DNA of 64,000 nucleotides from Sanderia malayensis (taxonomy: Eukaryota; Cnidaria; Scyphozoa; Semaeostomeae; Pelagiidae), in assembly GCA_013076295.1 (NCBI GenBank), contig RQOL01000618.1, forward strand, positions 4,650,001 through 4,714,000. The letters are read 5' to 3'. The notes beneath the pieces were generated by a model, which was given only the letters and a program-made list of their open reading frames with translations, did no database searches and was not told the origin of the DNA. A program made the position numbers and the translations under genes. Below are positions 23,713-37,860 of the stretch, in pieces; the first letter of the stretch is position 1; each line of letters begins with the position of its first letter.

Positions 23713-23997
23713 TGTAATATTATGCTTGCGTAAGTATAAATTGTATCATGTCTGTGTTAAAATATTAGAAGTAGAATCATGTTCGTGTTAGTTATATTGT
23801 TTTCCTGTGATGTACTTGTGACCGTGTCGTTTGTCTATATTATATCCGTTGTTGCTGTCACTATTGATTGATGTGTCGTATTATGATTGTTTTAGCTTAG
23901 GTGAATTTATAACAGTATTTCAGTTGAATGATTGATCTCGAGCAAGCAACATCTTGTGTTCTCTTGACTATACCTGCTTTACCCTTTAAACGCTACA
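23713..23997 (+). repeat. 5' LTR of Gypsy-2
   Basis: 285 bp, TG...CA. Differences from the 3' LTR are one base in GAATTTATAACAGT and one in TTTAAACGC. It carries the promoter of the element. Confidence 0.93.
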
Positions 23998-24000
23998 AAT

Positions 24001-24019: not shown

Positions 24020-24967
24020 ATGGCTTCAAGCATTTTACCAGCTCCTTTTACTTCTGGGGATTTTGGTGTCTGGATTCGTCAGTTTCAGCGATGTGCTGCC
24101 GCTAACAAATGGAATACCGAAGCGCAACTCCTAAAGCTTCCAGCCTTTCTTGATGGTCCGGCCGCCACATATTATGAAACCCTCTCAGATGGAGATAAAA
24201 CATCCCTGGACAGCTTGGTCGCCAGCCTGCACAAGTGTTTTTGCCCTCCAACTGACCGTGAGCGGTATTATCGAGAGTTTGAAGACCATCGCCTTCGCCC
24301 CGCAGAAGATCCCACGCTCTTCCTTTGGCGTTTGAAAGAATCACTTCGGAACGCTGAACCGGATTTATCTGGACCAGCTTTTGATGCTTTACTACGCCGG
24401 CAGTTCTTTAAAGGCTTGCCAGAAGAACTACAATTGAAGTTGTTGGAATCTGATCCTACGCCAACCTTGGCCACAATGACGTCATTCTCTCAGCGGTTTC
24501 GTTCACTCCAACGGTTGCCCACCAGCCCTGCCACTGCGTGTGCCGCTGTTGCCACCAGCCCCTTGGCCATGGAGGATCAACCTCTGTCCCAACAGCAACA
24601 ACCACAACAGCAACAACAACAACAATTACAGCTGGATAACGTTACTGGCCTACTGAGCAAGCTCGCTGAAGGACAAGCTAGCTTGATCGCTGCAATTTCG
24701 TCATCAGCTGCTCGTCAACCATCTTCTGTCATGCCTCCTCGTCGTCCTGGTTCATCTGTTCGCTGTTTCTTCTGTGGTGAACCTGGTCATATCGTCCGGA
24801 ATTGCGACAAACGTCAGAGAGCGCAGAAATGTACCCTTTGCAATGGCTGGGGCCATCATCCACAGAACTGTGCCAATAACTTTGATTCATCTCAGCCAAA
24901 ATCTGATATATTTCAACAACCAGATCGTAAGTTTTCTTTAAACTTTCAGGGGATGCCTCACTATTAG
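24020..24967 (+). CDS. gag: Gypsy-2 Gag
   Basis: 315 codons from ATG 24020, 22 bases after the LTR. Residues 1-170 are a retrotransposon capsid-like domain (FLDGPAATYYETL, then LFLWRLKESLRNAEP). A glutamine-rich stretch lies near residues 190-205. Two CCHC zinc knuckles follow: CFFCGEPGHIVRNC and CTLCNGWGHHPQNC, about residues 250-290. The length and layout are complete for a Gypsy Gag. It would form the particle and bind RNA. Pol lies in the -1 frame, with a heptamer TTTAAAC near the end of gag, so Gag-Pol is probably made by frameshifting. Confidence 0.9.
   Translation: MASSILPAPFTSGDFGVWIRQFQRCAAANKWNTEAQLLKLPAFLDGPAATYYETLSDGDKTSLDSLVASLHKCFCPPTDRERYYREFEDHRLRPAEDPTLFLWRLKESLRNAEPDLSGPAFDALLRRQFFKGLPEELQLKLLESDPTPTLATMTSFSQRFRSLQRLPTSPATACAAVATSPLAMEDQPLSQQQQPQQQQQQQLQLDNVTGLLSKLAEGQASLIAAISSSAARQPSSVMPPRRPGSSVRCFFCGEPGHIVRNCDKRQRAQKCTLCNGWGHHPQNCANNFDSSQPKSDIFQQPDRKFSLNFQGMPHY
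24937..24943 (+). promoter_or_regulatory. Predicted -1 ribosomal frameshift heptamer
   Basis: T TTA AAC is in the correct phase: gag codons TTA and AAC follow a codon ending in T. It sits 24 bases before the gag stop. After a -1 slip the reading frame stays open through the protease DTG motif to 25686. U UUA AAC is a classic slippery sequence. Confidence 0.7.
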
Positions 24968-25686
24968 GTTGGAGTGATGAGCATCCCACTACTTTTGCTT
25001 TTGGAACTACTTCTGTTGCTCCACGTGCCCTAGTTCCATGCCAACCCCTTGTTTCTTGTAAGTTTACTGGTGTACAGTTGTCAGCTCTTGTTGACACCGG
25101 GTCAATGCAATCTATTTTGAGTTTTGATGCTTTCCAACGCATTTTTCAGAGCTGTACACAGCAAAACCTTGTCCCACCGTTACTTGGAAGTAGTTCCAAC
25201 ACTTGTTTATCTATTACTGGACAACCATTGCAACCTGCTGGTGCAGCGGTCTTCCAGTTCTCATTTCCTGGTTGTGATTTTGCATTTAAGTTTAAATTTC
25301 TTGTATGTAATAATATGCTACAACCCTTCCAATGCATTCTGGGATGGGATTTTATTGTTGCCTTTCAATTACACTTGGCTTATTCTGGGGATTCCTATTT
25401 CTTAAATGGGCCACATGGCAGTACTCCCTTGATACCTTGGGCCCCACCTTCTGGTTCAACTTCCTCTAATTGTTCGATCCTGTCCAGTTCTCCTCAGGTG
25501 GGTCTGCCTTCTGGCTTTGCCCAGTCGTCCAACCAAGGGCCAGTCACTCTCACTCTTGTTGATAGTTTTTCCATCCCTGGTCGTAGTGAGTGTATTTTAC
25601 AAGCTAAGTTACCTCGAGGGTATTCTGAACAGTTAGGTATGGTGTGTAGTTTAGATGATTCTCCCTTATTATTGCATCAACTTTGA
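24943..25686 (+). CDS. pro: Gypsy-2 protease region (frame -1 to gag)
   Basis: The open -1 frame begins at the frameshift site. The aspartic protease motif is LVDTGSMQSIL at about 25087-25120; the later GWDFIV may be the flap/second-half region. The frame ends at TGA 25684-25686, after which the reverse-transcriptase frame continues one base back. No slippery heptamer is seen at this second junction, so I read it as a one-base mutation rather than a programmed shift. The protease would cleave Gag-Pol in the particle. Confidence 0.78.
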   Translation, partial: LSGDASLLGWSDEHPTTFAFGTTSVAPRALVPCQPLVSCKFTGVQLSALVDTGSMQSILSFDAFQRIFQSCTQQNLVPPLLGSSSNTCLSITGQPLQPAGAAVFQFSFPGCDFAFKFKFLVCNNMLQPFQCILGWDFIVAFQLHLAYSGDSYFLNGPHGSTPLIPWAPPSGSTSSNCSILSSSPQVGLPSGFAQSSNQGPVTLTLVDSFSIPGRSECILQAKLPRGYSEQLGMVCSLDDSPLLLHQL

Positions 25687-27680
25687 ATCAATCCAGCCAT
25701 AGTAGGGTCTTTGTACGTGTTTTGAACTCCTCAGAGTCTCCAGTCGAATTATATTCTGGTCAGAAGGTTGCCAAATTTCTTCCAGTTGTTGAATCTCTTC
25801 CAGTTAGACTGAGATCATCTGTTGATAATATTTGTGATAGTGTTTGCCAGCCAAGCATGGACCCTTGCACATTGCAAGAATTAGAGACAGCTGTTAGCTC
25901 TAGTTTATCTAGCCATGATCGTAATCATCTGTTGCAGACTTTGCTTGAATATCCAGATGTGTTTAACAATGGCTTAGGCCACACTACCGTGACTTCTCAT
26001 AAGATAAACACAGGTGATTCCCCTCCGATCCGCCAACACCCTCGACGCCTCCCCTATCACTACAGAGGTGAGGTTGACAAGCAAGTTCAGGACATGCTTA
26101 CTCAAGGTGTTATCAAGCCTAGCACGAGCCCCTGGTCTTCTCCTATTGTCCTTGTCAAGAAAAAGGATGGGTCTTATCGATTTTGTATTGACTATCGGAA
26201 ATTAAATTTAGTAACTAAGCATGACGCTATTCCCTTGCCTCGAATTGATGACTTGCTGGACGCCTTAAATGGGTATAACATCTTTAGTACCTTGGATCTT
26301 CGCAGTGGGTATTGGCAAGTCAGTGTAGACCCAGAAGATAGGGAGAAAACAGCTTTCATGACACCTACTGGTCTATATGAATTTTTACGCATGCCATATG
26401 GTCTATCCACTGCCCCGGCTACCTTTTCACGGGCCATAAGTGTTGTCCTGTCTGGTCTCGCCTACGAAACTTGCTTGTGCTATTTTGATGACGTAATTGT
26501 TTTTTCCAAAGATATCAACCAGCATTGTGATCGTTTGAAATCTGTTTTGCAACGTTTTCGAGAGCAAAATCTCCGTGTTAAAGCTTCCAAATGTTCATTT
26601 GGCTCGCACGAGGTTGCTTATTTAGGGCATACTATTTCTAAAGACGGCATCCATACTGACCCCAAAAAGGTTAAGGCAATTCAAGACATCCCAGCCCCTT
26701 CTACCCTGGAGGAGCTACGATCCTTTCTGGGACTTGCAGGCTACTACAGGCGGTTTATACCGGAATTTGCCACCATTGCCTCTCCCCTAATGGCCCTCAC
26801 TAAAAAAGCTACTCGATTTCTATGGACAGATATCACCCAAAAAGCATTTGAATACCTCAAAACCTGCCTCTGCTCAGCACCTATTTCAGCCTACCCTTGC
26901 TTGAACAAGACCTTTATCCTACAAACTGACGCATCAGATGTTGGGCTTGGTGCTGTCTTAACCCAGCTTGATGAATCAGGCCATGAAAGGGTCATATCAT
27001 ATGCCAGTCGAACTCTCACAAGCCGAGAACAAAATTACACAGCAATGGAGAAAGAAGCATTGGCTGTTGTGTTTGCAACTGACCATTTTCGTGTATATCT
27101 TTTGGGCCGTCAGTTTCAACTCATTACTGATAATAGAGCTTTGAAGTGGCTACATTCTATCCAAGCTAAAGGTAGAATTGCCAGATGGATTATGACCCTC
27201 CAAGAATTTGATTTTGTTGTTTCACACCGCCCCGGGGCCTCAAACCAAAATGCAGACGCTCTCTCTCGCTTAAACCATAGATGTTCCCCTTCTCCCTCTG
27301 CGCCACCCAACCATTCCACGAACACCCCTGTCAACTGCTTTGTTGGTCTTATCCCAGACACAGATTTGTACACCGCTCAACACCAAGACCCCAATATTTT
27401 GAAGGTCATTGAAATGAAAGAACAGGGCTTTCCTCGGCCCCCATCATTTGTGTGGTCGAAACATCAACACTTGTCGTCATATTGGTCGTGTTGGGACCAA
27501 CTTTTTGTGGATCGTGGCTTATTAATGAAATCAATAGACCCTGATAGCTCTTTTCCCAATAATGTTGTTGTTGTGCCCCAAAACTTAGTAAATGGTGTCC
27601 TCCACAGTCTACACAGTGGCCCTTCTGGTGGTCACATGGGTATTACTCGCACTATCTACAGGGCTAAAGAGCGGTTCTTT
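25683..27680 (+). CDS. pol: Gypsy-2 reverse transcriptase and RNase H
   Basis: RT fingers/palm: SPIVLVKKKDGSYRFCIDYR and LDLRSGYWQVSV. The catalytic box is CYFDDVIVFSKD (about 26478-26514). The thumb/connection contains LRSFLGLAGYYRRFI. RNase H has QTDASDVGLGAVL, MEKEALAVVFA, TDNRALKWLH and the tail NQNADALSRL. The integrase zinc-finger start (GGHMGITRTIYRAKERFF) follows, then the frame is lost near 27675 in a run of T, consistent with loss of one base; the open frame runs on out of register to 27938. All RT and RNase H catalytic residues are present. Confidence 0.88.
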
Positions 27681-27688
27681 GGCCTCAA

Positions 27689-28822
27689 ATGCATGCATCA
27701 ATTAAATCATTTATTCAAAGCTGTCCTGAATGTAGCCAAATTAAGCAGAATCCACACAACACCAAGGCCCCTTTACAACCAATTCAGATTAGCGAGCCAT
27801 TCGTTTTTTGGGCTATGGACTATATGGGGCCTATTAAGGAAACGTCACGCGGCAACAAACATATACTTGTGCTCATGGACCACTTCACCAAATGGTGTGA
27901 AGCATTCCCTACTCCCGATCAGAAAGCGTCGACTGTAGCTAATATTCTTGTGTCTCATGTTTTTTCTCGTTTTGGCCCACCTACAGTTCTCCATTCCGAC
28001 CAGGGTCGCAATTTTGATAGCATACTAATGCATGAAATATATGGTTTGATGGGCATCAAAAAGACCCGTACCACTGCCTACCATCCTCAATGTGATGGAC
28101 TTGTAGAGAGACAAAATCGTACCCTTCAAAGTATCATATCTAGCTTTGTTTCAGAACATAATGTCGATTGGGATGATTGGCTAGCCCAAGCAGTCTTTGC
28201 GTATAACACAAGTGTTCACGAGTCAACAGGTATTTCTCCCTATGAGATGGTATTTGGACGCCCAGCTCGAATGCCTATCGAAGTTGAGTTGGGTGTTCCC
28301 CTACGAAATCCTACCAGCCAGTCAAATTATAGCCAGTCATTGAGGAAAGCTCTTAGTCACTCGAATCAACTTGCACAGCGTAATTTAGTCAATGCTAGAG
28401 CTAAGCAAGCTTCCCAGTACGACAACAAGAGTAAGAGAAACTGGCAGCCCGTTGAGTCGGGACAGACGGTCTGGCTTTGGCGCCCCAAGCATTGGAAATT
28501 TGGTAAACGATGGACTGGCCCTTACAGAATACAGTCAAGAGATGGGGTTAATTACCGGTTAACATCGTCCATGGGAAAATCTCTTGTTGCGCATCATAAT
28601 CTCTTGAAGCCCTGTGTCTTACCCTTAAGTCCAGGTATCCCACTCCATCCAGGGCCAGAAACCCCAGGCATTACCCTTTCTGAAACTGTAGAGGCGGAGA
28701 TCGATCCAGCAGTTGGGAACCAAAGGGATATTGGAGGTGGTGCTGCCAGGCCCAACCGACCCCCTTTTCTCCGACAGGTCGTTAATCCCCCCATTCGCTT
28801 TGGAAATGTTGTGGCACATTAA
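27689..28822 (+). CDS. pol: Gypsy-2 integrase
   Basis: 377 open codons in the third frame, continuous with the RT polyprotein before a one-base loss near 27675. CPEC completes the HHCC zinc finger. The catalytic triad: D in WAMDYMGPI, D in HSDQGRNFD, E in GLVERQNRTL. The GPY/F-type module is WTGPYRIQSR. A short proline-rich tail ends at TAA 28820-28822, about 30 bases before the polypurine tract. The core looks undamaged. Confidence 0.88.
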   Translation: MHASIKSFIQSCPECSQIKQNPHNTKAPLQPIQISEPFVFWAMDYMGPIKETSRGNKHILVLMDHFTKWCEAFPTPDQKASTVANILVSHVFSRFGPPTVLHSDQGRNFDSILMHEIYGLMGIKKTRTTAYHPQCDGLVERQNRTLQSIISSFVSEHNVDWDDWLAQAVFAYNTSVHESTGISPYEMVFGRPARMPIEVELGVPLRNPTSQSNYSQSLRKALSHSNQLAQRNLVNARAKQASQYDNKSKRNWQPVESGQTVWLWRPKHWKFGKRWTGPYRIQSRDGVNYRLTSSMGKSLVAHHNLLKPCVLPLSPGIPLHPGPETPGITLSETVEAEIDPAVGNQRDIGGGAARPNRPPFLRQVVNPPIRFGNVVAH

Positions 28823-28867: not shown

Positions 28868-28994
28868 TGTAATATTATGCTTGCGTAAGTATAAATTGTA
28901 TCATGTCTGTGTTAAAATATTAGAAGTAGAATCATGTTCGTGTTAGTTATATTGTTTTCCTGTGATGTACTTGTGACCGTGTCGTTTGTCTATA
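28868..28994 (+). repeat. 3' LTR of Gypsy-2, first part
   Basis: 127 bp, identical as far as I can read to the start of the 5' LTR. Ends in TCTATA, the target duplication of the palindromic element. Confidence 0.93.
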
Positions 28995-29502
28995 AGTAGG
29001 AGAGGAAGTAGGTGTCCGAGCCCACCTGGCGCACGCATGCGCAGTAGAATTTTTTATTTTATTTTAGTGCTAAGATTACGCATGCGCGAGAATCTTCGAG
29101 AATTGAAAAGAGCATGAACAGTAAAAAAATAATCGAAAACGACAGGTTGTGGAAAGTTAGTTTGAAGTTGCAAAACATCGCCAAAGCTGATAAAAAAACC
29201 CATAAAAAGCTTAATAACTAAAAAACGGTTTTGTTTATGAAAAAGATTTTTACACCAAGAAAAAGAAAATCTCTTGGTTATATTGAATGAATTGTTTCAT
29301 ATTTTTCATGCACTTATAAGATGATAAGAATTTGTTAAATAAATCGCAAGAAAACACAAAAATATCGAGGAACTGGCAAATTCACGTTCTCGGCTCGAGA
29401 TTGAATTCAAAGAACAAATCAGAAACTTTCGAATGCGACGTTCGAATGTACGCGTCAAATCTCTTTCAATCCGAAGACTCGAAACCGAAATAAGTAATTC
29501 CC

Positions 29503-29713
29503 TCGGGGAAATCCCCCTGACGTCACATTCAAAAGATATTTCCAGAGGCAGAAAAATTCCTGCAATCTGATTGGCTAATGAAGATGACTTAGCAAAATTA
29601 GGAAATCACTGAGCCCCACATTCGAACGATTTTTTCCAGAAGCGGGGAAATCCCCTGACGTCACATTGAAAGATTTTTCTAGAAACAGAAAATCTCTGTA
29701 ATCTGATTGGCTG
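29503..29713. promoter_or_regulatory. Duplicated CRE and CCAAT-box block near the left end
   Basis: Two direct copies of about 72 bp (29503-29577 and 29642-29713), each with TGACGTCA (29518-29525; 29656-29663) and GATTGGCT (29569-29576; 29705-29712). The inverted counterparts of TGACGTCA in the right arm are at 35331-35338 and 35469-35476. These are consensus CREB and NF-Y sites by sequence. They lie downstream of the zinc-finger gene, towards the terminus, so they might drive inward transcription or act as binding sites in transposition. Confidence 0.5.
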
Positions 29714-29889
29714 ATAGCCAAGATTTCGAGTCACTTTAAAACAAAACTTGAAATGGACATTATTCAAAACAAAATGTGCAAGCTGTTGAAGAAACTATTT
29801 TAACACGTTTCAAGAAGAAAGACGCCATGAAAAAGAGACCATTTTCTGCATTAGCAAACAATAATATCTAAACCTTTTTATAAGCATTG

Positions 29890-30390
29890 TTATATCCTAC
29901 TATATGGAAATGCTGGAGTACTATTAAATTCAAGTTCATTCACAGCAGCATCCTCAGAATCACTAGCTTCCTCTTCTTCGTCATTCTTTGCTTGACGTAT
30001 GATGAGATATTTTCTTTTCTCAATAGCATAATCTAAAGCCTCTTGCATATCCATATCATCTTCCCTCTGTGCTTTTTGCATCGTTGCTATAACTGCAGTT
30101 ACAACAGCATCATTTTCAAAACTTCTATTATATAAAAATCTACGTTTGAAAACTTGCAATATGTTTTCATCTTCATCCACTTCCTTACGCATAGAAGGCC
30201 ATACATTCCCTAAAGGAAGATCCTCATCAGTGTTGACAGTTTCATCATTATCATGATCACTTTCAACTTCTATCTCATCATCTGAGTCAGACTCTTCACT
30301 GCTCTCCTCGTGCATCTCTTCTTCATGTCGTGTAACATTACTTTTATACTTGGAAGAAAATTCACATTGATCACATTTATACTGACTCAT
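29890..30390 (-). CDS. C2H2 zinc-finger protein of the palindromic element (intact copy)
   Basis: 166 codons from the first ATG (30388-30390). I do not recognise the family. Residues 4-27 form one C2H2 finger (YKCDQCEFSSKY, then NVTRHEEEMH). An acidic stretch follows (SSEESDSDDEIEVESDHD). The second half is predicted helical (FENDAVVTAVIATMQKAQ, then DMDMQEALDYAIEKRKYLI) and ends in another acidic patch (NDEEEEASDSEDAA). A single finger plus acidic and helical parts suggests a nuclear DNA-binding or regulatory protein; that is inference. It reads outward to the terminus and is divergent from its copy at 34617. A TATA box lies 71-77 bases before the start codon. An in-frame codon upstream (TTG) is not needed as a start. 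Confidence 0.75.
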   Translation of the reverse strand: MSQYKCDQCEFSSKYKSNVTRHEEEMHEESSEESDSDDEIEVESDHDNDETVNTDEDLPLGNVWPSMRKEVDEDENILQVFKRRFLYNRSFENDAVVTAVIATMQKAQREDDMDMQEALDYAIEKRKYLIIRQAKNDEEEEASDSEDAAVNELEFNSTPAFPYSRI

Positions 30391-30460
30391 GGCTAGCTGT
30401 TTACTTATAATTACCAACTAACTCTTAAATCCCTGAATTCTAGAGTCTCAACTCGCTTGA

Positions 30461-30467
30461 TTTTATA
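30461..30467 (-). promoter_or_regulatory. TATA box of left zinc-finger gene
   Basis: TATAAAA on the minus strand, 71-77 bases upstream of the ATG at 30390. The same box is conserved in the right arm at 34530-34536. Confidence 0.6.
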
Positions 30468-30530
30468 GATAAGTTCCTCCATTCAATATGATACGGGAGA
30501 GGGACTGAATGATATTCCGAATAAACAGAA

Positions 30531-32330
30531 CTTAATCCTTGGATAATGCTAACTAATCCTGATTAATGACTACTCCATTCTAGCTAATCATTCCTAGTCA
30601 TTACCTTCTCAATACTTGATCCTCAATACATCCTTGATTATCATTCCTAATCATTAACCTGATCATTAGTTGATCCTTCACTGATCCTTACTAATCCTTA
30701 CAGTCACTACTGATCATCAGTATATCCTTAAACTGATCCTCACTAATCCTAACTAATCATCCCTAATCATTACCTTATCATTACTTGATCCTTAGCTGAT
30801 CCTCACTAATCCTAACTAATCATCCCTAATCATTACCTTATCATTATTTGATCCTTAACTGATCCTACCAATCCTAACCAATCATACTTAATCATTAGCA
30901 GATCATCAGTTGATCCTTAACTGATCCTTTACTATCCTTACCAATCATACCTATTCATTACCTGATCATCAGTAGATCCTTAACTGATCCTTGATAATCC
31001 TTACCGTCACTACTGATCATCAGTTGATCTTTACCTAATCCTCACTAATCCTAACTAATCATTCCTAATCATTACCATATCATTACTTGATCTTTAACTG
31101 ATCCTCACTAATCCTAACTAATCATTCCTAATCATTACCTTATCATTACTTGATCCTTAGCTGATCCTCACTAGTCCTAACTAATCATCCCTAATCATTA
31201 CCTTATCATTACTTGATCCTTAACTAATCCTCACTAATCCTAACTAATCATCCCTAATCATTACCTTATCATTACTTGATCCTTAACTGATCCTTTCTAA
31301 TCCTAACTAATCATTCCTAATCATTACCTTATCATTACTTGATCCTTAACTGATCCTCACTAGTCCTAACTAATCATTCCTAATCATTACCTTATCATTA
31401 CTTGATCCTTAACTGATCCTCACTAATCCTAACTAATCATCCCTAATCATTACCTTATCATTACTTGATCCTTAACTGATCCTCACTAATCCTAACTAAT
31501 CATTCCTAATCATTACCTTATCATTACTTGATCCTTAACTGATCCTCACTAATCCTAAATAATCATCCCTAATCATTACCTTATCATTACTTGATCCTTA
31601 ACTGATCCTCACTAATCCTAACTAATCATTCCTAATCATTACCTCATCATCAGTTGATCCTTAGCTGATCCTCATTAATCCTTACCAATCATACTTAATC
31701 ATTACCTGATCATCAGTAGATCTTTTACTGACCCTTGATAATCCTAGCCACTCATACCTAATCATTAGCTGATCATGAGGTCATCCTTAATTGATCCTCA
31801 GTGATCCTTATAGTCATTCATAGTCATTACTGATCATCAGTTGATCCTTAGCTGATCCTCACCAATCCTTACCAATCATCCTTAATCATTACCTGATTAT
31901 CAGTTGATCCTTAGCTGATCCTCATTAACCCTTACCAATCATACTTAATCTTTAGCAGATCATCAGTTGATCCTTAACTGATCCTTGCTAGTCCTTATCA
32001 ATCTTTCCTAATCATCATCTGATCAGCTGTTGATCCTTACTAGTCCTTACCAATCATTCCTAATCACTACCTGATCCTTAGTTGTTCCTAACTAATCCTT
32101 ACGAATCCTTACTAATCATTCTTAATCATTACCTCATCATTAGTTGATCCTTAACAGATCCTTCTAATCCCAACTATTCATTACTAATCATAGCTAGTCA
32201 TTACATAATCATTAGTTGATCTTTAACTGATCCTGGCTTTATCCATTCAACATTTATCTTTACTAATCCTGACTAATAATTTCTTATCATAACCCAATCC
32301 TTATTAATCCTTGCCTAGATTTTATTAATC
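30531..32330. repeat. 63-bp tandem repeats, left arm
   Basis: Best units between 31020 and 31640 repeat every 63 bases (for example ACTTGATCCTTAACTGATCC at 31274). Each unit is six variants of a 10-11-bp phrase of the type CTAATCCTAA/CTGATCCTTA/CTAATCATTA. Units near the edges are degenerate and shorter. The array lies between the two divergent promoters. Confidence 0.92.
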
Positions 32331-32400
32331 TTCAGTTGATCCCGACTGAGCACCCTCCACAGTACTGCTGAAGATTAATAAAATCTAGGCAAGGATTAAT

Positions 32401-32880
32401 TCGGCCGCACCTTCGGCCATAAAAAGTAAAATTAAAATATTAAACAAACGAACATTGACGTTAGAGGTACCAATCTGCAAATCCAAACATGGTGAACGAG
32501 CTATTTCCAGAGCGGGCCCTAGAGTTTGGAATAACTTACCCCTTCAAACAAGACTAATTGAAGTGAAGGATGCTTTTAAGTCCAATTTAAAATCATTTCT
32601 CATGACAACAAACTTAACTAACTTTAATAATAATAATTAGCCGTAAAAAAATACCCAGAAAACAAGTTTTTAGTCAATCTGATTTTACTTTTCCGAAATG
32701 AAATTAATCTGTAAAAAGTTTTTTAGTCAATTTTTAGTCTACTTTAATAAAAAATCCTAGTTGTTGTAGAAATATTGTAGATAAATAGTTCACAGTTGAG
32801 CAAACTGCCCATATAATACATATGGCGGTAGAAACTGTGGGTAAGACCCAGTTATTATTATTATTATTATTATTATTAAT
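32401..32880 (+). mobile_element. 5'-truncated LINE fragment in the palindrome centre
   Basis: Interrupts the right arm between AAGGATTAAT (32391-32400) and AAGGATTGGG (32881). An open piece at 32467-32625 matches the C-terminus of jockey/CR1-like reverse transcriptases (RAISRAGPRVWNNLPL, then FKSNLKSFL). The 3' end is a (TTA)n tail at 32851-32880. AAGGATT on both sides may be the target duplication, but the original arm already had two such phrases, so this is ambiguous. Confidence 0.78.
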
Positions 32881-34465
32881 AAGGATTGGGTTATGATAAG
32901 AAATTATTAGTCAGGATTAGTAAGGATAAATGTTGAATGGATAAAGCCAGGATCAGTTAAAGATCAACTAATGATTATGTAATGACTAGCTATGATTAGT
33001 AATGAATAGTTAGGATTAGAAGGATCTGTTAAGGATCAACTAATGATGAGGTAATGATTAAGAATGATTAGTAAGGATTCGTAAGGATTAGTTAGGAACA
33101 ACTAAGGATCAGGTAGTGATTAGGAATGATTGGTAAGGACTAGTAAGGATCAACAGCTGATCAGATGATGATTAGGAAAGATTGATAAGGACTAGCAAGG
33201 ATCAGTTAAGGATCAACTGATGATCTGCTAAAGATTAAGTATGATTGGTAAGGGTTAATGAGGATCAGCTAAGGATCAACTGATAATCAGGTAATGATTA
33301 AGGATGATTGGTAAGGATTGGTGAGGATCAGCTAAGGATCAACTGATGATCAGTAATGACTATGAATGACTATAAGGATCACTGAGGATCAATTAAGGAT
33401 GACCTCATGATCAGCTAATGATTAGGTATGAGTGGCTAGGATTATCAAGGGTCAGTAAAAGATCTACTGATGATCAGGTAATGATTAAGTATGATTGGTA
33501 AGGATTAATGAGGATCAGCTAAGGATCAACTGATGATGAGGTAATGATTAGGAATGATTGGTAAGGATTGGTGAGGATCAGTTAAGGATCAAGTAATGAT
33601 AAGGTAATGATTAGGGATGATTAGTTAGGATTAGTGAGGATCAGTTAAGGATCAAGTAATGATAAGGTAATGATTAGGGATGATTATTTAGGATTAGTGA
33701 GGATCAGTTAAGGATCAAGTAATGATAAGGTAATGATTAGGAATGATTAGTTAGGATTAGTGAGGATTAGTTAAGGATCAAGTAATGATAAGGTAATGAT
33801 TAGGGATGATTAGTTAGGACTAGTGAGGATCAGCTAAGGATCAAGTAATGATAAGGTAATGATTAGGAATGATTAGTTAGGATTAGTGAGGATCAGTTAA
33901 AGATCAAGTAATGATATGGTAATGATTAGGAATGATTAGTTAGGATTAGTGAGGATTAGGTAAAGATCAACTGATGATCAGTAGTGACGGTAAGGATTAT
34001 CAAGGATCAGTTAAGGATCTACTGATGATCAGGTAATGAATAGGTATGATTGGTAAGGATTAGTAAGGATCAGTTAAGGATCAACTGATGATCTGCTAAT
34101 GATTAAGTATGATTGGTTAGGATTGGTAAGGATCAGTTAAGGATCAAATAATGATAAGGTAATGATTAGGGATGATTAGTTAGGATTAGTGAGGATCAGC
34201 TAAGGATCAAGTAATGATAAGGTAATGATTAGGGATGATTAGTTAGGATTAGTGAGGATCAGTTAAGGATATACTGATGATCAGTAGTGACTGTAAGGAT
34301 TAGTAAGGATCAGTGAAGGATCAACTAATGATCAGGTAATGATTAGGAATGATAATCAAGGATGTATTGAGGATCAAGTATTGAGAAGGTAATGACTAGG
34401 AATGATTAGCTAGAATGGAGTAGTCATTAATCAGGATTAGTTAGCATTATCCAAGGAGGATTAAG
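32881..34465. repeat. 63-bp tandem repeats, right arm
   Basis: Inverted counterpart of 30531-32330 (plus strand reads GGATCAGTTAAGGATCAAG). It has about three fewer units than the left arm. Confidence 0.92.
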
Positions 34466-34529
34466 TTCTGTTTATTCGGAAATATCATTCAGTCCCTCTC
34501 CCGTATCATATTGAATGGAGGAACTTATC

Positions 34530-34536
34530 TATAAAA
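34530..34536 (+). promoter_or_regulatory. TATA box of right zinc-finger gene
   Basis: TATAAAA, 81-87 bases before the ATG at 34617; mirrored at 30461-30467 with the same surroundings. Confidence 0.6.
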
Positions 34537-34616
34537 TCAAGCGAGTTGAGACTCTAGAATTCAGGGATTTAAGAGTTAGTTGGTAATTATAAGTAAACAG
34601 CTAGCCATGAGTCAGT

Positions 34617-35107
34617 ATAAATGTGATCAATGTGAATTTTCTTCCAAGTATAAAAGTAATGTTACACGACATGAAGAAGAGATGCACGAGGAGAGCAGTG
34701 AAGAGTCTGACTCAGATGATGAGATAGAAGTTGAAAGTGATCATGATAATGATGAAACTGTCAACACTGATGAGGATCTTCCTTTAGGGAATGTATGGCC
34801 TTCTATGCGTAAGGAAGTGGATGAAGATGAAAACATATTGCAAGTTTTCAAACGTAGATTTTATATAATAGAAGTTTTGAAAATGATGCTGTTGTAACTG
34901 CAGTTATAGCAACGATGCAAAAAGCACAGAGGGAAGATGATATGGATATGCAAGAGGCTTTAGATTATGCTATTGAGAAAGAAAATATCTCATCATACGT
35001 CAAGCAAAGAATGACGAAGAAGAGGAAGCTAGTGATTCTGAGGATGCTGCTGTGAATGAACTTGAATTTAATAGTACTCCAGCATTTCCATATAGTAGGA
35101 TATAACA
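34617..35107 (+). pseudogene. C2H2 zinc-finger protein of the palindromic element (frameshifted copy)
   Basis: Inverted copy of 29890-30390. The first 80 or so codons agree with the left copy, including the C2H2 finger and acidic stretch. One T is missing in the run at about 34860, which puts the frame out. One A is missing in the run at about 34980-34985. The open frame therefore ends early at 34897. Both losses are in homopolymers, so either post-insertion decay or sequencing error could explain them; the left copy shows neither. Confidence 0.8.
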
Positions 35108-35997
35108 ATGCTTATAAAAAGGTTTAGATATTATTGTTTGCTAATGCAGAAAATGGTCTCTTTTTCATGGCGTCTTTCTTCTTGAAACGTGTTAAAATAG
35201 TTTCTTCAACAGCTTGCACATTTTGTTTTGAATAATGTCCATTTCAAGTTTTGTTTTAAAGTGACTCGAAATCTTGGCTATCAGCCAATCAGATTACAGA
35301 GATTTTCTGTTTCTAGAAAATCTTTCAATGTGACGTCAGGGGATTTCCCCGCTTCTGGAAAAAATCGTTCGAATGTGGGGCTCAGTGATTTCCTAATTTT
35401 GCTAAGTCATCTTCATTAGCCAATCAGATTGCAGGAATTTTTCTGCCTCTGGAAATATCTTTTGAATGTGACGTCAGGGGATTTCCCGAGGGAATTACTT
35501 ATTTCGGTTTCGAGTCTTCGGATTGAAAGAGATTTGACGCGTACATTCGAACGTCGCATTCGAAAGTTTCTGATTTGTTCTTTGAATTCAATCTCGAGCC
35601 GAGAACGTGAATTTGCCAGTTCCTCGATATTTTTGTGTTTTCTTGCGATTTATTTAACAAATTCTTATCATCTTATAAGTGCATGAAAAATATGAAACAA
35701 TTCATTCAATATAACCAAGAGATTTTCTTTTTCTTGGTGTAAAAATCTTTTTCATAAACAAAACCGTTTTTTAGTTATTAAGCTTTTTATGGGTTTTTTT
35801 ATCAGCTTTGGCGATGTTTTGCAACTTCAAACTAACTTTCCACAACCTGTCGTTTTCGATTATTTTTTTACTGTTCATGCTCTTTTCAATTCTCGAAGAT
35901 TCTCGCGCATGCGTAATCTTAGCACTAAAATAAAATAAAAAATTCTACTGCGCATGCGTGCGCCAGGTGGGCTCGGACACCTACTTCCTCTCCTACT

Positions 35998-36161
35998 TCT
36001 ATATTATATCCGTTGTTGCTGTCACTATTGATTGATGTGTCGTATTATGATTGTTTTAGCTTAGGTGAATTTATAATAGTATTTCAGTTGAATGATTGAT
36101 CTCGAGCAAGCAACATCTTGTGTTCTCTTGACTATACCTGCTTTACCCTTTAAGCGCTACA
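35998..36161 (+). repeat. 3' LTR of Gypsy-2, second part
   Basis: Resumes with the repeated TCTATA (35998-36003); the remaining 158 bp match the 5' LTR with two differences. 127 + 158 = 285, the full LTR length. Confidence 0.93.
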
Positions 36162-36324
36162 ATAGAAAACTTTGTTCTCGGGAATTTGACGTCATCGGCA
36201 CATTCAACGTCGAATAACGGAGAAATAGTAGCTCTGATGACAAAAGTAACGCTGGATATCGATTTTACGGCAAACAGTACGTTATATGAGCCAAAGTTGT
36301 TTTTAGGTGTCAGTTCTCCTTTAA

Positions 36325-37188: not shown

Positions 37189-37860
37189 TTTAGAGAGTTG
37201 CTCTATGCAGATGATGCAGATTTCGTAGCTCATCGTGAAGGAGAGATGCAACTGATCATGGATTGCTTTTCAGCTGCGTGTACTGCTTTTGGCTTGACCA
37301 TTATCAAGAAGACCAAAGTCATGTTCACCGTCACCACCTGGTACTGTTTTATTGAGCCCTCAATTTATGTCAATGGTGTAAGACTGGAAGTTGTAAACAA
37401 CTTTGTTTATCTGGGGAGCACAATGGCTATAGATCGTACTTTAGATGCAGAAATAACTCTCAGATTTGAAAAGGCCAGCATTGTTTTCAGTAAGCTTGAG
37501 GAAAGGGTTTGGTCAGACAGAGACCTTAAGACCGAAACCAAGATTGTGATATATATAGCATGTGTTCTGTCAGTTCTTCTTTATGCAGCTGAGGGGTGGA
37601 ATGCTATGAGAAGACATGTCAAACTTCTTGAAAGGTTTCATCAGCAGTGTCTCCGCCGTATACTAAATGTTAAATGGCAAACGTTTACCCCCGACACAAA
37701 GATCCTTGAGCTAGCTGGTATAAACAGTATTGAATACAATCTCGTGCAAATGAAACTAAGATGAGCTGGACACGTATCTCGAATGGATGACTCGAGGATT
37801 CCAAAGAGACTTCTTTATGGCGAACTGGTTACTGGAAAGAGAAAGAAGGGGAATAAGTAA
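37189..37860 (+). pseudogene. LINE reverse transcriptase C-terminal fragment
   Basis: Starts inside the RT palm at the catalytic box (LLYADDADFVAH). It continues with the fingers-to-thumb region (NNFVYLGSTMAID, then VLSVLLYAAEGWNAM) and the C-terminal LERFHQQCLRRILNVKWQ. A TGA at 37762 interrupts it where tryptophan is expected, and similarity continues after it (GHVSRMDDSRIPKRLLYGEL) to about 37855. Everything N-terminal of the YADD box is missing, as in a 5'-truncated non-LTR copy. The clade cannot be fixed; the pattern is that of widespread invertebrate non-LTR elements. Confidence 0.8.

What the first reader, a model, noticed from the sequence alone, without database searches (positions are those of the whole stretch)
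28995..35997. Giant palindromic mobile element with a gene pair and tandem-repeat core
A 7003-bp palindrome with an exact 6-bp duplication TCTATA. Each arm has the same order: terminal region, outward-reading C2H2 gene, TATA box, 63-bp repeats. The LTR it entered is otherwise intact, so the insertion as one unit is directly proven and an assembly fold-back artefact is unlikely (arms also differ by about 191 bp). No known superfamily combines this layout with a 6-bp duplication and AGT/ACT ends. A hypothesis is a snap-back dimer of one end of a Polinton-like element mobilised in trans by an integrase.
Basis: partly seen in the sequence, partly recalled or inferred. Interest (0 to 1): 0.93.

Follow-up and report, generated by a model that had tools for sequence, protein, structure and literature searches.

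The report
Palindromic satellite of a Polinton
This 7-kb stretch is one of dozens of mirror-image mobile elements in this genome that carry the ends of a larger virus-like transposon (a Polinton) around a pair of zinc-finger genes, and it is likely moved, and likely copied, by that transposon's enzymes, which would make it a parasite of a parasite.

Summary
In detail: 28995-35997 is a palindrome flanked by TCTATA on both sides, and the 5' LTR of the retrotransposon it entered shows the empty site. It is not unique. Its outer end occurs at 40 or more places in the 184-Mb assembly, and its C2H2 gene at 117 loci, with 39 outward-facing pairs. In 22 of 23 family insertions with both ends read, the 6-bp duplication is exact. 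The same 474-bp end bounds Polinton loci with a packaging ATPase, an rve-chromodomain integrase and a PolB-type polymerase. The palindromes are therefore a non-autonomous, foldback-type satellite of a resident Polinton, very probably moved by its integrase. Six full centres share a ~35-nt asymmetric loop (one founding fold-back). Arms are sisters in 15 of 18 elements, and two elements carry the same private gene-breaking mutation in both arms, so arms are copied from each other. Hairpin replication explains this well; gene conversion, proposed for Galileo, remains a serious rival.

The parts
28989..28994 (.). left 6-bp target-site duplication TCTATA
35998..36003 (.). right 6-bp target-site duplication TCTATA
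28995..29468 (+). left terminal segment T (474 bp), shared at about 95% with the ends of resident Polinton loci
35524..35997 (-). right terminal segment T, inverted copy
29890..30390 (-). left-arm C2H2 gene, 166 aa, reads outward; zinc finger (PF13909) plus predicted helical C-terminal part
34607..35105 (+). right-arm copy of the C2H2 gene, reads outward, frame-shifted by two 1-base differences (open frame 34607-34897)
30461..30467 (-). TATAAAA starting 77 bases upstream of the left ATG (possible TATA box)
30617..32191 (+). left 63-bp tandem array, lies 5' of the gene
32992..34353 (-). right 63-bp tandem array, three units shorter after alignment
28995..32338 (+). left arm (3344 bp)
32339..32373 (.). 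asymmetric central loop, shared by the six full centres read
32374..35997 (-). right arm (3624 bp including a 471-bp insertion)
32400..32874 (+). insertion in the right half of the centre with (TTA)n tail and a broken frame that looks like a LINE 3' end (label from recall); absent from the five other full centres
28868..36162 (+). 3' LTR stretch (28868-28994 and 36004-36162) of the Ty3/gypsy-type retrotransposon that the element entered (retrotransposon label from recall of its ORFs); 5' LTR match at 23713-23998

Best explanation
The palindrome is one copy of a many-copy, non-autonomous family that shares its terminal 474 bp and its 6-bp target duplication with Polintons of the same genome, and it is very likely integrated in trans by the Polinton integrase and likely replicated by the Polinton protein-primed polymerase. 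Shown: shared ends, 6-bp duplications, integrase, polymerase and ATPase genes on loci with these ends, copy number, a common central loop, and arms that evolve in concert. Inferred: a monomer with Polinton ends, one C2H2 gene and a tandem array (L022 is such a form) once folded back on itself during replication and became a self-complementary dimer. That dimer then spread. In each cycle its single strand would fold into one long hairpin whose paired ends rebuild the Polinton origin; mismatches between arms would be repaired or one arm copied into the other, so both arms leave the cycle alike. The C2H2 protein, under the array and TATA box, probably binds DNA and serves the element's own expression, replication or regulation; its exact target is untested.
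For: Many copies of the end (41 matches, only 40 of 326 candidates scored). T is shared with Polinton loci that encode a Pox_A32-type ATPase, rve+chromo integrase and DNA_pol_B_2. T lies 6.76 kb from rve(+) in C383 and C731, and about 3 kb from polB in C430 and C758. The interval C829:529512-561416 has T at both ends and TTCGCC on both sides. TSDs exact in 22 of 23 family insertions with both ends read: window, L009, L018, L022, L026, C432, C453 and C728, and 14 of 15 further pairs, the 15th off by one base. 39 outward versus 2 convergent gene neighbours among 117 loci. Same loop in six full centres. Sister arms in 15 of 18 elements; random pairing reaches at most 4 in 2000. Element-private lesions shared by both arms in C303 and in C829:885k. 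Low-identity gene loci are single: 9 of 10, against 30 of 107 high-identity ones, p = 1.9e-4, cut-off of 90% chosen after seeing the list.
Against: No hairpin or episome was observed; replication by PolB is inferred. Arm homogeneity is also reported for Galileo: 98-100% between the TIRs of one copy (PMC3573991, passage). Arrays differ more between arms than the outer part does: 32/1553 against 2/1595 in the window copy, 67/1888 against 0/1598 in L009, 74/501 against 41/1596 in L018. In the window copy and L009 most of this sits beside unit-size gaps, the insertion or in one block, but in L018, L019, L023 and L028 arrays are clearly less alike. 3 of 18 elements do not have sister arms (L031, L043, L053); in L037, L043 and L051 an arm of another element is nearer than the partner arm. 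Selection on the gene is not proven: pN/pS 0.57, bootstrap 0.28-1.28, with more amino-acid than silent change in the zinc-finger part; L022 against window 0.62, p = 0.36.
Confidence: 0.82

Rival explanations
1. Polinton-mobilised foldback element whose arms are kept alike by host gene conversion or interrupted gap repair inside the chromosome, not by a hairpin replication cycle. The palindrome itself arose by TIR extension, as proposed for Galileo.
For: Galileo TIRs of one copy are 98-100% identical and are proposed to extend by conversion; the same passage says expansion of inverted repeats has been reported for Polintons (PMC3573991, passages only). Arrays are less homogeneous than outer parts in L018, L019, L023 and L028.
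Against: One conserved asymmetric loop in the six full centres read suggests one founding fold-back rather than repeated TIR extension. Apart from the insertion and the unit gap the arms of the window copy are nearly alike from terminus to loop, and those of L009 on both sides of one array block. Conversion would have to act at most sites.
Confidence: 0.4
2. The inner part (C2H2 gene plus array) is one end of another, unsampled or extinct Polinton, so the element is a true snap-back of a Polinton end.
For: Ends are Polinton ends; distant C2H2 homologues (28-40% identity) exist in other data sets, context unknown.
Against: Mapping of the arm pieces on the T-sharing loci L011, L012 and L016 finds neither gene nor array, only T and a 30-31-base match, and the 1600-bp arm query finds only T-derived matches on L010, L013 and L025. 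The C2H2 gene next to one Polinton end (L010:7100-8053) is unrelated (E 0.55). Of 117 C2H2 loci only those on C170, C323, C437 and C866 lie within 20 kb of an integrase or polymerase row in the lists compared; I read these as separate or nested insertions but did not fetch the contexts.
Confidence: 0.25
3. A foldback element of another superfamily (Mutator or P type) that only resembles Polinton ends.
For: Most described foldback elements are assigned to Mutator (PMC4079207, passage).
Against: 474 bp of end sequence shared at about 95% with Polinton loci, and the same 6-bp duplication; Tetris has 8-10 bp (passage) and Galileo 7 bp (passage).
Confidence: 0.03
4. Assembly or read fold-back artefact.
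For: Long palindromes can be made by unclipped hairpin reads (recalled). The C432 copy is four-fold tandem in the assembly, which may be real or an assembly effect. Polishing could in principle even out arms (recalled).
Against: Different flanks continue on each side with a target duplication at 22 of 23 sites; the LTR continues across the window insertion; arms of several copies do differ.
Confidence: 0.01

Closest known systems
Polinton/Maverick transposons
   Same: terminal segment, AGT...ACT ends, 6-bp target duplication (6 bp for Polinton in a passage of PMC10045372)
   Different: no integrase, polymerase or ATPase gene found; 3.6-10 kb in the single-unit copies read, instead of the typical 15-25 kb (PMC6431247, section 10); palindromic; carries a C2H2 gene and tandem arrays
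Foldback-type elements (FB, Galileo, Tetris, Tm1)
   Same: very long inverted repeats with internal tandem repeats, often non-autonomous; in Galileo the TIRs of one copy are alike (passages; Tm1 from a listing; FB recalled)
   Different: those are assigned to the P or Mutator groups, with 7-bp (Galileo) or 8-10-bp (Tetris) duplications; here the partner is a Polinton, the arms meet at a 35-nt loop, and each arm carries the same gene
Virophages and transpovirons (abstract starts, and recall)
   Same: small element that would depend on enzymes of a larger virus-like element
   Different: helper is an integrated Polinton, not a giant virus; no capsid gene seen; no particle data
Palindromic defective adenovirus genomes and self-complementary parvovirus DNA (recalled; the listings gave no paper that I could use on them)
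   Same: one end of a linear genome duplicated head to head around a short loop by fold-back synthesis
   Different: those arise during infection; here the form is inherited and spread through a genome by many insertions

Membership tests
[quoted passage not shown]
   the only ATG ORFs of 80 aa or more inside 28995-35997 are the C2H2 ones; DNA_pol_B_2 is present in L010, a locus with the same end
Polinton/Maverick (autonomous) | rve (DDE) integrase | tested here: not met
   absent from the palindrome by the same ORF list; present with chromodomain in L011 and L016
Polinton/Maverick (autonomous) | packaging ATPase | tested here: not met
   absent here; Pox_A32-type ATPase in L011, L016, L013
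Polinton/Maverick (autonomous) | jelly-roll capsid proteins | not tested
   no capsid search was made, neither in the palindrome nor in the Polinton loci; the palindrome has no ATG ORF of 80 aa or more besides the C2H2 ones
Polinton/Maverick, non-autonomous derivative | shares terminal inverted repeat with a resident autonomous family | tested here: met
   474-bp T, about 95% identity
Polinton/Maverick, non-autonomous derivative | 6-bp target-site duplication | tested here: met
   22 of 23 family insertions with both ends read
Polinton/Maverick, non-autonomous derivative | moved by the Polinton integrase in cells | not testable with these tools
   inference from ends and duplications
Foldback-type element | long inverted repeats containing tandem subrepeats | tested here: met
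Foldback-type element of P or Mutator type | target duplication of 7-10 bp | tested here: not met
   6 bp
Virus satellite | replicated and packaged by helper proteins | not testable with these tools
   no particle or episome data

The most novel reading that the evidence does not exclude
A satellite of a Polinton with a self-complementary hairpin genome: its single strand folds into one long duplex, is copied by the Polinton polymerase from the rebuilt terminal origin, may be packaged by the Polinton ATPase and capsid, and is inserted by the Polinton integrase, while its own duplicated zinc-finger gene controls the process. It would be a hereditary, genome-spread counterpart of palindromic defective adenovirus genomes.
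Probability: 0.35. Interest if true: 0.92.

Novelty: new variant of a known kind. Interest (0 to 1): 0.76.

Why it matters
[quoted passage not shown] A dependent element that keeps only their ends and still spreads would show which cis signals are enough, and its mirror-image form may record how the DNA is copied. Counting arm-to-arm differences in fresh insertions would directly test whether Polinton DNA passes through single-stranded or hairpin intermediates. It would also add Polintons to the superfamilies that give rise to foldback elements, and each arm carries a gene with relatives in other data sets.

Tried and rejected
Rejected: assembly fold-back; other transposon superfamily; arm interior taken from the resident Polinton. 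Led nowhere: IMG/VR scan for the C2H2 protein, 318 pattern matches, none a relative; structure model of low to moderate confidence, mean pLDDT 62.7, and no PDB fold match at E <= 0.001; naming the host with a COX1 fragment, nothing found. The host is not identified. Tree of T segments from Polintons and palindromes: intermixed but short and poorly resolved, so not used as evidence. pN/pS of the gene: not significant. Literature: five listings, of which I saw titles and abstract starts only (25 of 44 papers; 51: 10 of 10; 54: 15 of 143; 59: 20 of 23; 76: 9 of 9), show none about a palindromic Polinton derivative; the library lacks most subscription papers and preprints, so this is weak evidence of novelty. 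Searches for palindromic adenovirus genomes gave nothing usable; that comparison is recalled.

The lists themselves are capped (one search scored 115 of 625 candidates, 150 of 199, 120 of 212). In one search, 5 of the 20 fetched pairs lacked a terminus in the fetched stretch and were left out; the same 5 are missing. Of other held copies, L019, L020, L023 and L024 show only one end and are not in the 23. Most pairs fetched had full-length gene matches, so the share of pairs without a lesion in either arm (18 of 23) is biased upward. The identities used were typed.
Full report
What is there. The window palindrome runs from 28995 to 35997 and is flanked on both sides by TCTATA. The interrupted LTR is restored when the flanks are joined with one TCTATA: 286 columns match the 5' LTR without a gap at 99.3%. 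Each arm reads, from the outside: a 474-bp terminal segment T, a short variable piece, an outward C2H2 gene (166 aa in the left arm), a TATA motif 77 bases before the left ATG, a 63-bp tandem array, and half of the centre. The axis is a 35-nt loop that is not itself symmetric. The right arm holds a 471-bp insertion with a (TTA)n tail, absent from the five other full centres, and lacks three 63-bp units.

It is a family. The outer 406 bp found 41 matches in the own assembly with only 40 of 326 candidates scored. The C2H2 protein found 144 matches, which merge to 117 loci; 39 neighbouring pairs face outward, 2 neighbours face inward and 8 lie on the same strand. I read both ends of 23 insertions: window, L009, L018, L022 (single-gene form), L026 (one arm cut to 50 bp), the C432, C453 and C728 copies, and 15 of 20 further pairs. 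The 6-bp duplication is exact in 22 of 23; the other differs by one base. Among the flanks compared (C432, C453 and C728 were not among them) no two palindromes share more than short or weak matches, except the tandem C559 pair. These are separate insertions, though the assembly also holds some allelic duplicates (C231 and C829).

The helper. A second class of loci shares only T with the palindromes and then carries Polinton genes. L011 and L016 have a Pox_A32-type ATPase, an rve integrase with chromodomain (partial rve match in L016) and a Fic-like gene; L013 has the ATPase; L010 has DNA_pol_B_2 beside its end. Genome-wide the integrase, ATPase and polymerase give 139, 154 and 137 matches, pieces and more distant families included, from capped lists. 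In C383 and C731 the order is T, integrase at +6.76 kb, polymerase at +13.9 to +14.3 kb; in C430 and C758 the polymerase lies about 3 kb from T. The interval C829:529512-561416, whose middle 12 kb I did not read, has 483-bp inverted ends (96.5% identical) and TTCGCC on both sides. A 6-bp duplication is stated for Polintons in PMC10045372 (passage). The palindromes are therefore non-autonomous partners of this Polinton. That the integrase moves them and the polymerase copies them is inference, though the first has no good competitor.

How the palindrome arose and persists. Six full centres (window, L009, L018, L019, L023, L028) share the same stem and loop (the loop of L009 matches L018, L019, L023 and L028 at 94-100%), and pieces of the loop are in L024, L026 and the C432 copy. 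One fold-back event thus most simply founded the family. L022 has the same kind of ends (TIR 993 bp made of T plus a 73-bp array), one gene and its own duplication GAGGTC, as a monomer ancestor would. Gene loci below 90% identity are single in 9 of 10 cases, against 30 of 107 for the rest (Fisher p = 1.9e-4, cut-off chosen after seeing the list); contig edges, truncation and alleles may add to this, and I could read only L022 as a full insertion among the divergent ones.

Arms evolve in concert. In 18 elements with both termini, arm-to-arm difference over about 1.33 kb is 0 to 2.3%, and 0.4% or less in 14 of them. The nearest arm of another element is 0.2 to 2.4% away (median about 1.8%), and the median distance to other elements is 3.4 to 5.8%. 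The two arms are sisters in 15 of 18; random pairing reaches at most 4 in 2000 trials. In three elements (L037, L043, L051) an arm of another element is nearer than the partner arm. Two elements carry a gene-breaking change found in no other gene copy aligned there, identical in both arms. So sequence passes from arm to arm. A strand of such an element can fold on itself, and protein-primed copying, as in adenovirus, releases single strands (recalled); repair of the hairpin, or copying of one arm around the loop, would give this pattern. But Galileo also shows 98-100% identity between the TIRs of one copy, and conversion is proposed there (PMC3573991, passages). Arrays add noise: in the window copy 32 of 1553 array and centre positions differ against 2 of 1595 outside, mostly next to the 189-bp gap or the insertion; L009 has one divergent array block between identical stretches; L018, L019, L023 and L028 have clearly divergent arrays. 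I therefore give the hairpin step about even odds and the Polinton link a high probability.

The gene. Seven relatives in other data sets (28-88% identity; whether some come from the same species is unknown) keep the zinc-finger residues and the C-terminal EALDYAxxKR stretch, so the gene is probably older than this family's expansion. pN/pS among 28 elements is 0.57 with an interval that includes 1; the C-terminal part is lower at 0.26, the zinc-finger part above 1 on very few changes. The position of the array and TATA motif upstream of the gene suggests that the array is regulatory; this is untested.

Verdict. A real, striking and many-copy element: a foldback-type satellite of a Polinton. 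Both components are known kinds; I saw no description of the combination in five paper listings, titles and abstract starts only, a limited search. New variant of a known kind.

Noticed in passing
L069-L071 (C432:107400-128100): The left part of a palindrome with TSD ACCCTT is repeated four times head to tail (unit about 4877 bp, 99.5% alike) before the final palindrome; local amplification or an assembly effect.
   Followed up: partly
L011:3571-4125, L016:2909-3463: The Polinton loci carry a Fic/DOC-domain gene (PF02661), an unusual cargo as far as I recall.
   Followed up: no
C289, C446, C853, C585 and others: Integrase matches only 41-45% identical to the first family, often in intact frames of 384-660 aa; perhaps a second Polinton family.
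   Followed up: no
L010:7100-8053: A 318-aa C2H2 gene sits between the polymerase match and the Polinton end; not related to the palindrome's C2H2 gene.
   Followed up: partly
L016 and L013: C231 and C829 share the flank of a Polinton end at 99.5%, so the assembly holds allelic copies and copy counts are somewhat inflated.
   Followed up: partly
L011 left flank and L010 right flank: Polinton ends on C383 and C569 are both flanked by TGTAAG; perhaps two ends of allelic copies.
   Followed up: no
L011:4282-4312, L016:3767-3796: A 30-31-base stretch of the palindrome arm (between T and the gene) recurs inside the Polinton loci at about 97% identity.
   Followed up: no
window 24020-28822: LTR retrotransposon that looks like Ty3/gypsy by its ORFs (recalled), with its reading frame interrupted; target of the palindrome.
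   Followed up: partly
window 37246-37764: 172-aa frame that resembles the C-terminal part of LINE reverse transcriptases by eye; no Pfam match.
   Followed up: no
L022 (C571:314005-317626): Single-gene relative with 73-bp instead of 63-bp arrays.
   Followed up: yes
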